A DNA stretch of 64,000 bases from positions 11,470,664-11,534,663 of the forward strand of contig CM049315.1 in assembly GCA_026874595.1 (NCBI GenBank), in the 5' to 3' direction. Numbering within the stretch: position 1 is the first letter of the stretch; every line of letters begins with the position of its first letter. The notes below the pieces were generated by a model. That model did not search any database. It had not been told where the DNA came from and was given only the letters and a program-made list of their open reading frames with translations. A program made the translations under genes and the position numbers. This document shows, piece after piece, positions 31,287 to 34,200 of this stretch. Origin of the DNA: Sipunculus nudus. Lineage: Eukaryota; Annelida; Sipuncula; Golfingiida; Sipunculidae.

Positions 31287-34200
31287 CTGAAATAAACACA
31301 AAATGATTCAATGAAAGTATAAACATATATAATACACTTAACAACATTCCATTAAGGTCATCTGCAGTTCTGCAAAAACAAATATTCCAACATGCAAACA
31401 GATCATAAATCCAAACAACAAGGCCACCTGTGTGCTGATTAAGTTTCAACTGTATTACAATAAAAATAAAGGCAACTGGCTTCTGGCATGAAATCTGGAG
31501 TCGGAAAGGCAAAACCTACAGTCTATAATTTATCTCCTAGTGCAGGCTGAAGACACTTTTATGACTTTTGTGTGGGAGTCACTAAAGGTCTTATGTCAAT
31601 ATCGCTATTACTATCATCAAAGATAATCACAGAACTTGAGATAACATGCTGCCATCTCTTACTGGAACCATTCCATGTTAGAACCATTCCCATCCCTTGA
31701 TTAATATACATTTTACCCCTCCAATAAACACACAGACAAACTGATAATAAATGATATTATTATTACTTACATCCAGTTCTTAGGGGTTTCAAGGTGTTCA
31801 AATAATTCATCTTTTTATACCTACCATATAAGTTGTTAAGCTCATCTCGTACCAACTAAAGGATATCATCAAGGCCCAAATATATATGATTTATTAAATT
31901 TTAATTTCATTTTATCACTTGGTTACTGGTAATTGATGAAATTAAATCGCACAGTTGAGACAAAACAGATCAGCATCTGGGACAGTTCATACAGTTTTCC
32001 CAGCTAATGGTCACTTCACACCTTACATGCAATGCATGCATATTTACTTTTTATACAAAATAAAAAAAAATGTTACTATAATACTTTTTATATGTATTTT
32101 TGAATGAAATGATCAATTCTTAGTCAATAATTAATTAATGAAAATGAAGGAACCAGAATCCACCTCCCCTTAGTATGTGTGCACACCTCAAGCCCTCCCT
32201 ACAAACAAAGGCAGACAGACGAAATATTTTTGGACTTAATAATGGTTAACCCATGCTTGAAAGTTTACCTTAAGAACATGTAGTGACATTGTGATATGTT
32301 GTTTAAACACAGTATCATAAGGAAACCATTTCACAGGCAGCCCATCACAGGTCATGGTTGCTTTTAACATGTTATAGTTAAACCTAAAACCCTTTTGTGA
32401 TTTAGACACAGGAGTACATGTATTGCCAAATATTTACACATGCTTAAAGCAAGGCTGCATCCAGCGACCCCGAATCAGTGCCCTTTATTTACCATAGCTG
32501 TGCTGTAATCCTTGTACATGTAGTTAACTGTATATATGTGAGAATGATGTGAAATTGATGACAGCATTTGTATGTTAGTTCAAAGCATGCACCAAAACCT
32601 GGAACAGACATGACTGAGAAAATCATGGCCAAGTGAAAAACAAGTCCTGTTACTGTCATATTTATACTCAGACAGCCAAGTGCCCATGCTTGTCAGCCAG
32701 AAGTGCTGTTCACTCAACACAACACTAACCATTTCTTGGACATTAGTGACTTGAGTGGACTGTCTTTACAGACTGTGCTGCTCTGAACATATGTATGAGT
32801 ATGTAAACCTGCATGATACAGGATTCCTTTTCCTCCTTTTCCTCTCTGCCGTTGTGTAACAAAACTTGGCATAAAGGAGAATTTGTACTACAACATTTGC
32901 TGATAGTTAATTTGATGGTATGTCCCATCATACTTATAAAAACATTATTAAAAAGCCTGCCATAAGGCTGTTAAAAACATATTGCCATCTTGTCACTTTG
33001 GCTCATGATGCTAGATCTGAAGAGACCATATTCAGACAAGGAAAATGCACTGAAAGGCTCACTGAGTGAGAGTCCCAAAACATGCAGACAACTCACTATA
33101 TTAATATTTACTGTTACAAAAAACAAATGCCAACTTAACATGCAATAACAATTCACACACCAAGCCATCAAAGACATGCTTCAAGCAGTCTAAAAGATAA
33201 GTTCCTTTTGGAAACTAAAACTAAACAATCCAATGATTAAAGCATTTCTGCATCCCACATTTACTAAAAGAACATGAATGCGCTAGGTAAAGCAGCCATG
33301 CCTAGTGTCTGCCAACTCACTGGGACAGGTTTATAGCCATATTTGGGCCATCACTGCTATGACTGCGGAGATCCCGCTGATAGCAATCAGAAGTACATGT
33401 ATGGGGACTCCTGATTGTTGCTGAACAGCGCCATTGCCGGGGAAGACAAACCTTTCTGGAAGCTCTTTCTGGAGCTCCTCAACCAGAAAATTCCGGGGAA
33501 CCTCTCTCTAGGAATGGAAAGTATACGGAAATGTGTGAGTATAGTAGAGATTGTCCTTAGTTGTCATTAAAACAGCACAATAGTAGTATACTTATCACCT
33601 ACTAATTTTGTGTTGTTGATGGACTATATAATACTATAATACATATCTATATGCAAGATGGCCCTTATATGGTTATATCTTCTTATCTTTCTATTTTCCT
33701 TTTCACCTATCAATTATATACTATTGGTAATGATAAGTTTATACATCTGAGTTAACTGCCCTCAATACTACTCATTCCTTTTATGGTGAAGGTCATTAAA
33801 GATTCATTCATGGATATAAAGACAAGGTCAAAGTAACAACACAAGTAGGTCCCCTGTGTATCATTTTATTTTAGGGGTTAAATTCTCATCATTTCTTTTT
33901 TAATTTTTCCCATTAAAAGATGACAAGTCTGCACACAGAAAACAGTAACAAAAACTGTATTGTCACACTAGAATTCAGGCACAGATTGTCTGAGAAATGA
34001 AACCTTTTTTATATAGATTTGTACATTTAAAAGTTGAAAAAATATTGACTTGACCAAAAATCATACCTGCGCCAGGTGACAGGAGGTGTTATACTTTACC
34101 CTACATCTGTGTGTCAGCAAATTTACACAGAAAGTACTGTACTGAACAGAATTTATTGAAATTTTCTGGAGTGCTAAGATAAAATCCAAGGAACATCCCT

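What the first reader, a model, noticed from the sequence alone, without database searches (positions are those of the whole stretch)
33331..33507. HARS alternative last exon encodes a C-terminal membrane anchor (tail-anchored histidyl-tRNA synthetase)
Seen: a clean 59-codon frame behind a good acceptor, in the phase left by exon 12. It begins like a normal HisRS C-terminus ([13 protein letters not shown]) and ends with about 21 non-polar residues running to the stop codon. Known: proteins with a single C-terminal helix and no residues after it are inserted post-translationally as tail-anchored proteins; HisRS is normally soluble. Inference: a second isoform of 548 residues would display the synthetase on a membrane (ER, mitochondrial outer or other), for localized translation or a non-translational role. 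I know of no described metazoan HisRS of this type.
Basis: partly seen in the sequence, partly recalled or inferred. Interest (0 to 1): 0.9.

Follow-up and report, generated by a model that had tools for sequence, protein, structure and literature searches.

The report
Animal HisRS with optional membrane tail
In an unidentified invertebrate the gene for the enzyme that loads histidine onto its tRNA carries two alternative endings, one ordinary and one finishing in a greasy helix that would tether the enzyme to a membrane, an arrangement not seen in the other versions examined here but not yet backed by RNA or protein data.

Summary
A HARS gene lies on the minus strand: 12 shared exons, 51152-38544, GT-AG and in frame. 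Two exons downstream both open at an AG acceptor in the phase left by exon 12. The proximal one (33507-33331) reads 58 codons, begins [16 protein letters not shown] and ends in about 21 mostly non-polar residues before TAA. The distal one (31286-31188) reads [16 protein letters not shown] plus a short polar tail, the usual kind of HisRS end. Among 215 open AG-preceded frames in 11 kb, only these two match the HisRS C-terminus (28.3 and 24.1 bits; next -17.6). Their DNA similarity is near background, yet both keep the protein motif, so both look selected: an old exon duplication. Only the proximal tail has a membrane-helix signal (about -0.4 kcal/mol; AF2 helix 36-57); none of 142 retrieved HisRS proteins ends in one. 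Best reading: a mutually exclusive last exon that makes a tail-anchored HisRS beside the soluble one. Not shown: transcription, splicing, insertion, conservation. Codon usage does not support the tail itself, a weak internal donor could remove it, and it could be a degradation signal. 'Mollusc' is not supported. New variant of a known kind.

The parts
51051..51152 (-). HARS exon 1 (cytosolic start MADKTT..., WHEP domain)
   Evidence: Pfam WHEP-TRS 7.3e-15 in the spliced protein
46868..46954 (-). HARS exon 2
46160..46279 (-). HARS exon 3
45454..45549 (-). HARS exon 4 (weak donor ACA|gtatcc)
44498..44623 (-). HARS exon 5
43902..44009 (-). HARS exon 6
43354..43452 (-). HARS exon 7
42884..42977 (-). 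HARS exon 8
42187..42314 (-). HARS exon 9
39770..39842 (-). HARS exon 10
39125..39414 (-). HARS exon 11
38544..38690 (-). HARS exon 12, last shared exon, ends ...AAREE, phase 0, donor GAG|gtgagc
33331..33507 (-). Proximal last exon 13p: 58 codons + TAA; HisRS C-terminal helix, linker, C-terminal hydrophobic helix
33334..33396 (-). Predicted membrane helix [21 protein letters not shown] (last 21 codons before the stop)
33260..33265 (-). Candidate poly(A) signal AGTAAA, 65 nt after the stop, where the GC-rich patch ends (AATAAA lies 841 nt after the stop, at 32489)
33315..33323 (-). Candidate donor CCA|GTGAGT (last exon base 33321, 10 nt after the stop): 13p could instead be a cassette exon with the distal exon as 3' UTR; same protein, stop under 50 nt from the junction
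   Evidence: score 2.8; the 12 HARS donors score -5.2 to 8.6
33446..33454 (-). Candidate internal donor AAG|GTTTGT (same nine bases as the exon-11 donor); if used it would remove the hydrophobic tail
31188..31286 (-). Distal last exon 13d: 32 codons + TGA, ordinary soluble HisRS C-terminus
30904..30909 (-). AATAAA poly(A) signal, 278 nt after the distal stop

Best explanation
The gene makes two HisRS proteins that differ only at the C-terminus, by choice between two mutually exclusive terminal exons born from an old duplication of the last exon. Using 31286-31188 gives a 522-residue soluble enzyme. Using 33507-33331 gives a 548-residue enzyme in which the normal last helix is followed by a linker of about 20 residues and a roughly 21-residue helix that ends at the stop codon. 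Such a helix leaves the ribosome only after termination, so the protein would be inserted after translation as a tail-anchored protein (GET/TRC40- or EMC-type route; recalled knowledge). The whole synthetase would face the cytosol, and with no basic residue after the helix the ER family of membranes is likelier than the mitochondrial outer membrane. The likely purpose is to hold histidyl-tRNA production, or a signalling role of HisRS, at a membrane in certain tissues or states. Shown: gene, both exons, phases, HisRS homology of both exons, predicted helix. Inferred: duplication and its age, use of the exon, insertion, target membrane, purpose.
For: In-frame 12-exon HARS with WHEP, catalytic and anticodon-binding domains, 763 bits to human HARS1 4g85, aligned to residue 505. 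Only two of 215 open AG-preceded frames downstream of exon 12 match the HisRS C-terminus, 28.3 and 24.1 bits, next -17.6; HMM E-values 1.5e-4 and 2.8e-3 for the best domains. The DNA of the two exons is near background (first 48 nt: 7 of 200 shuffles reach the score; whole exon 74 of 200) while both keep the protein motif, as expected if both are translated. Tail: predicted insertion -0.43 kcal/mol against +3.8 for the best stretch of the first 500 residues, +8.6 for the distal tail, +2.7 for the lowest of 120 family tails, and -5.9 for the in-window cadherin-like TM as positive control (scale parameters recalled). AF2 of the 58 residues alone gives helices 5-15 and 36-57, with pLDDT block means 91 and 87 for residues 41-50 and 51-58. 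GC rises near the acceptor from about 0.3 to about 0.5 and stays there to about 33280-33260, next to AGTAAA. A 501-base query round the exon found only itself in the 1.43 Gb genome (the tool skips very common words), so a repeat origin has no support.
Against: No RNA or protein evidence. Codon usage favours coding in the first 19 codons (+6.5 bits) but not in the tail (-3.6 bits; 30% of 1479 open intronic windows score as well). The helix is only marginally favourable, and about 1% of open tails nearby do as well. GC this high also occurs in 4.4% of 117-nt intron windows. No relative with this tail: the C-terminal searches found nothing at E<=10 or 31 hits that cover only 58-68% of the piece, and 0 of 142 retrieved proteins has a hydrophobic C-terminus. 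A weak internal donor could cut the tail off.
Confidence: 0.58

Rival explanations
1. The proximal exon is used, but its hydrophobic C-terminus acts as a degradation signal (BAG6-type quality control of exposed hydrophobic tails), so the isoform is an unproductive sink that lowers HisRS output instead of a membrane enzyme.
For: The tail's codon usage looks non-coding and the helix is only marginally hydrophobic. Passages of PMC12863090 treat C-terminal tail hydrophobicity as a degradation determinant that tail-anchored proteins escape through the SGTA/BAG6 checkpoint.
Against: The first 16 residues keep the HisRS motif although the DNA of the two exons is near background similarity, which a pure sink would not need. 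The tail is V/I/A/S/G-rich, whereas the eight lowest-energy frames printed are Y/I runs or F/L-rich.
Confidence: 0.15
2. The proximal exon is real but ends at the internal donor AAG|GTTTGT (33452) and is spliced on to 31286, giving ...[17 protein letters not shown], 26 residues after REE and inside the family range. The hydrophobic stretch is then intron.
For: The donor's nine bases equal those of exon 11's donor. The joined frame ends at an ordinary length; family range 18-36, median 20, in 97 rows. Tail codon usage is neutral.
Against: Donor score is low (1.5 on a recalled matrix, equal to exon 11's and above only exon 4's among 12 donors), and 3 of 71 GT sites inside the shared exons score as well or better. 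It needs the distal exon in a frame other than its HisRS-like one. GC enrichment and the open frame continue past the donor to the stop.
Confidence: 0.12
3. The proximal exon is a dying duplicate: a former last exon that lost its original stop and is no longer used; the hydrophobic frame is chance.
For: No relative with the tail; tail codon usage neutral; about 1% of open tails in the neighbourhood are as insertable by chance.
Against: Of the two copies it matches the family profile better (28.3 against 24.1 bits) with an intact acceptor, although the DNA of the copies is near background similarity. Decay would have erased this.
Confidence: 0.15

Closest known systems
Cyanobacterial aaRSs with the CAAD domain (ValRS, IleRS, GluRS, LeuRS, ArgRS, MetRS, CysRS); PMC4893482, abstract and one Results section read
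   Same: An aminoacyl-tRNA synthetase fixed to a membrane by an appended element.
   Different: CAAD is a conserved domain inserted in the body of other synthetases (HisRS not among them), bacterial, thylakoid in the ValRS case; the section read reports none outside cyanobacteria. Here: an animal HisRS, one helix at the very C-terminus, optional by splicing.
Single HARS gene with alternative N-termini for cytosol and mitochondria (zebrafish hars); PMC5608375, abstract and one section read
   Same: One HARS gene makes HisRS isoforms for different compartments by alternative exons.
   Different: There the choice is at the 5' end and gives a mitochondrial version; here it is at the 3' end and gives a membrane helix.
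OAS1 p42/p46; PMC6950736, abstract read
   Same: An isoform pair in which one C-terminus leaves the enzyme cytosolic and the other moves it to membranous organelles.
   Different: OAS1 p46 uses a CaaX motif instead of a helix, and the isoform expressed is determined by a SNP.
IgM membrane/secreted switch by intronic polyadenylation; PMC5928244, passages read
   Same: Choice of terminal exons decides membrane-bound or soluble product.
   Different: IgM is a secretory protein with the membrane exons distal; here a cytosolic enzyme with the membrane exon proximal.

Membership tests
Eukaryotic cytosolic HisRS (HARS1) | WHEP + class II HisRS catalytic + HGTP anticodon-binding domains | tested here: met
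   Pfam PF00458 7.3e-15, PF13393 1.5e-43, PF03129 1.5e-19
Eukaryotic cytosolic HisRS (HARS1) | Ordinary short polar C-terminus (18-36 residues after REE in 97 rows that fitted the motif, of 120) | tested here: not met
   Met by the distal isoform (32 residues), not by the proximal one (58)
Tail-anchored proteins | Single hydrophobic segment within about 30 residues of the C-terminus, few or no residues after it | tested here: met
   Last 21 residues; predicted -0.43 kcal/mol with scale parameters recalled, not from a call
Tail-anchored proteins | No N-terminal signal peptide or other membrane segment | tested here: inconclusive
   For the MADKTT start the best other stretch is +3.8 kcal/mol; no signal-peptide predictor was run and the longer form from the ATG at 51299 was not scored
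Tail-anchored proteins | Post-translational insertion, N-terminus cytosolic | not testable with these tools
   Needs an insertion assay
CAAD-type aaRS anchor | CAAD domain inserted in the synthetase | tested here: not met
   No such Pfam family in the 548-residue protein or in the exon; the exon's only match is DUF3262, E 0.024, below cut-off
Alternative last exons | Two terminal exons with acceptors in the same phase, each with stop and poly(A) signal | tested here: inconclusive
   Acceptors, phases and stops met. Distal AATAAA present; proximal has AGTAAA at 65 nt or AATAAA at 841 nt, or a donor after the stop. No RNA

The most novel reading that the evidence does not exclude
An animal aminoacyl-tRNA synthetase is made in a regulated, integral-membrane, tail-anchored form by a mutually exclusive last exon that arose by ancient exon duplication, so that histidyl-tRNA synthesis or HisRS signalling can be moved between cytosol and an organelle surface by splicing alone.
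Probability: 0.45. Interest if true: 0.82.

Novelty: new variant of a known kind. Interest (0 to 1): 0.62.

Why it matters
Animal synthetases have many roles outside translation, and how a soluble enzyme is placed at a membrane is usually explained by partners or signals (recalled). Here the gene itself would encode an anchored and a free form, giving a direct test of whether local tRNA charging or a membrane role of HisRS matters in an animal. It would also show how a membrane anchor can arise on a housekeeping enzyme by exon duplication. My literature searches showed no animal synthetase with an encoded membrane anchor (listings and abstract starts; lists capped, a library of open-licence papers only).

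Tried and rejected
A third HisRS-like match at about 35493 (12.4 bits) has no acceptor in front of it and is not among the AG-preceded frames printed: chance. A transposon or repeat origin of the exon has no support: one match in the whole genome, itself (which skips very common words), and no direct repeats of 30 or more bases in 30.5-39.5 kb. An integrin-alpha-IIb resemblance of the tail (E 1) and DUF3262 (E 0.024) are weak matches that I take for hydrophobicity only. Homology between the tail plus 3' region of 13p and the 3' region of 13d, to show origin by stop loss, was not detectable (39 of 200 shuffles as good). Naming the species failed: contig starts fetched were not analysed, and the tree did not resolve the phylum. 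The search of the own genome for retrocopies that would record the splice did not complete. Rfam found nothing in the window at gathering thresholds. AF2 was run on the 58-residue exon only, as a single sequence, because the spliced protein is not read letter for letter from the window.

Full report
What is there. The minus strand of 51152-31188 holds one cytosolic-type histidyl-tRNA synthetase gene. Twelve exons with GT-AG borders, set by frame and homology, join in frame. The protein has the WHEP, HisRS catalytic and anticodon-binding domains and matches human HARS1 (4g85) with 763 bits from residue 6 to 505. Exon 12 ends at 38544 after ...NVAAREE in phase 0.

Two ends. Two exons follow, both behind an AG acceptor (12 of 16 pyrimidines at -20..-5 in each) and both beginning AGAGA in phase 0. 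33507-33331 reads [58 protein letters not shown] and stops. 31286-31188 reads [32 protein letters not shown] and stops, with AATAAA 278 nt further on. The isoforms have 548 and 522 residues.

Are both really HisRS ends? I made a position matrix from 88 distinct C-termini (97 rows that fitted the REE-type motif out of 120 retrieved; 23 dropped). Over all 47,037 six-frame 17-mers of the window the two exons rank first and second (28.3 and 24.1 bits); third is 12.4, then 2.6. The third has no acceptor. Restricting to frames that open behind an AG in the 11 kb after exon 12, 2 of 215 score above zero and the next is -17.6. The family's own rows, from which the matrix was made, score 15.4 at minimum and 37.8 at the median.

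Age. At DNA level the two exons are close to background: the whole exons align no better than 74 of 200 shuffles, the first 48 nt no better than 7 of 200. The amino-acid motif is nevertheless kept in both. The simplest reading is an old duplication of the last exon with both copies held by selection as protein. This is the main argument that 13p is used, because a dead copy would have lost the motif.

The tail. Predicted insertion energy of the last 21 residues is -0.43 kcal/mol (position-dependent biological scale, parameters recalled), against +3.8 for the best stretch of the first 500 residues, +8.6 for the distal tail, at least +2.7 for the last 45 residues of 120 relatives, and -5.9 for the membrane segment of the neighbouring cadherin-like gene as positive control. 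12 of 937 open 25-codon tails before stops in 27.5-64 kb, both strands, do as well, presumably counting the tail itself; of the eight lowest printed, four are simple-repeat runs and four are F/L-rich. By Kyte-Doolittle, 0 of 195 open intronic tails reach 2.34. AF2 on the 58 residues alone gives helices 5-15 and 36-57 with a loose stretch between; mean pLDDT 73.5, and 91 and 87 in the last two blocks. Against the tail: codon usage supports coding in the first 19 codons (+6.5 bits) but not in the remaining 39 (-3.6 bits), and 30% of 1479 open intronic windows score as well. The codon table comes from a soluble protein, so a membrane helix is at a disadvantage, but the result stands as a lack of support.

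Borders and 3' end. GC content rises from about 0.3 to about 0.5 near the acceptor and falls at about 33280-33260, next to an AGTAAA 65 nt after the stop; a full AATAAA lies 841 nt after it. GC this high is found in 723 of 16,490 intron windows (4.4%): 158 of them in the preceding intron, none in the following one. A donor-like CCA|GTGAGT lies 10 nt after the stop. If used, 13p would be a cassette exon with the distal exon as 3' UTR and the stop close to the junction, where nonsense-mediated decay is not expected (recalled); the protein would be the same. A weaker donor inside the exon, AAG|GTTTGT at 33452, would remove the tail and could join the distal exon in another frame to give an ordinary-length end. 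It scores like exon 11's donor, and 3 of 71 GT sites inside the shared exons do as well or better. I cannot exclude it.

Relatives. Full-length search: 7992 proteins (the candidates sharing most words), 120 listed, best identity 79% among those that cover most of the query. C-terminal searches: residues 478-548 gave none at E<=10 out of 125 candidates, ordinary HisRS ends included, so that search had no positive control; residues 450-548 gave 31 hits at E<=1 covering 58-68% of the piece, which shows that ordinary ends are found. None of the 142 retrieved proteins has a hydrophobic C-terminus: highest 19-mer in the last 50 residues 1.66, against 2.45 here; a few rows are fusions or truncated and do not end in the HisRS C-terminus (for example P0012, P0134). 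The database is clustered at 90% identity, so isoforms of one species could be hidden, and no close relative is present; absence says little about expression and nothing about close kin. In a 51-row tree the window sequence lies outside the 29-row group of 22 named molluscs and 7 unnamed rows (84/97, drawn open), in an unresolved set with Lingula, annelids and Priapulus (46/88), although its highest identity, 80%, is to the mollusc Littorina. 'Mollusc' is not supported and the phylum is open. The exon region was found once in the 1.43 Gb genome.

How it most likely works. Splicing of exon 12 to 13d gives the soluble enzyme; splicing to 13p gives a synthetase whose body should fold as usual (the last helix is kept), followed by a flexible linker and a helix that emerges only after termination. 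Proteins of this shape are inserted after translation as tail-anchored proteins with the body in the cytosol (established knowledge, recalled). No basic residue follows the helix, which argues mildly for the ER family of membranes over the mitochondrial outer membrane (inference). The use is inferred: local charging of tRNA-His or a non-translational role at a membrane.

Compared with what is known. CAAD-bearing cyanobacterial synthetases are membrane-anchored, but by a conserved domain inserted in the enzyme (PMC4893482, abstract and one section read). Zebrafish hars shows compartment choice at the 5' end (PMC5608375, abstract and one section read). OAS1 p42/p46 shows a C-terminal isoform difference between cytosol and membranes by CaaX (PMC6950736, abstract). 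IgM shows the terminal-exon switch (PMC5928244, passages). Human mitochondrial AspRS and ArgRS associate with membranes without a predicted transmembrane domain (PMC6120215, passages). Six literature searches (capped listings and abstract starts seen) showed no animal synthetase with an encoded membrane anchor; the library holds open-licence papers only. It is a HisRS by every domain test made, and its proximal isoform fits the sequence definition of a tail-anchored protein as far as tested; insertion was not testable.

Verdict. Observation confirmed and enlarged; interpretation plausible and partly supported; no expression evidence. New variant of a known kind.

Noticed in passing
51299-51153 (-): In-frame upstream ATG gives a 49-residue extension with several Arg and Leu in front of the WHEP start, a possible mitochondrial leader; by eye P0013 and P0026 show the same layout.
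   Followed up: partly
50154-49999 (-): Possible alternative first exon (...[25 protein letters not shown], followed by gtaggc) resembling by eye the alternative N-termini of HisRS from Branchiostoma P0061, Haliotis P0016 and P0028: perhaps a further conserved HisRS N-terminus.
   Followed up: partly
12907-27446 (+): Convergent plus-strand gene for a large cadherin-like protein with EGF-like repeats, one transmembrane helix and a long cytoplasmic tail (family read by eye from ORFs; no family search run).
   Followed up: no
52542-51742 (-): Reading frames that look like fragments of a non-LTR retrotransposon (by eye).
   Followed up: no
48256-48128 and 47714-47586 (-): Two 42-codon frames with identical translation 542 bases apart in intron 1, suggesting a local duplication.
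   Followed up: no
database protein P0134 (766 aa): HisRS with an extra C-terminal domain (PF18569 listed; the end looks glutathione-transferase-like by eye; the family name was not looked up).
   Followed up: no
45454 (-): Exon 4 has an unusually weak donor, ACA|gtatcc (score -5.2); the border is set by frame and homology.
   Followed up: no
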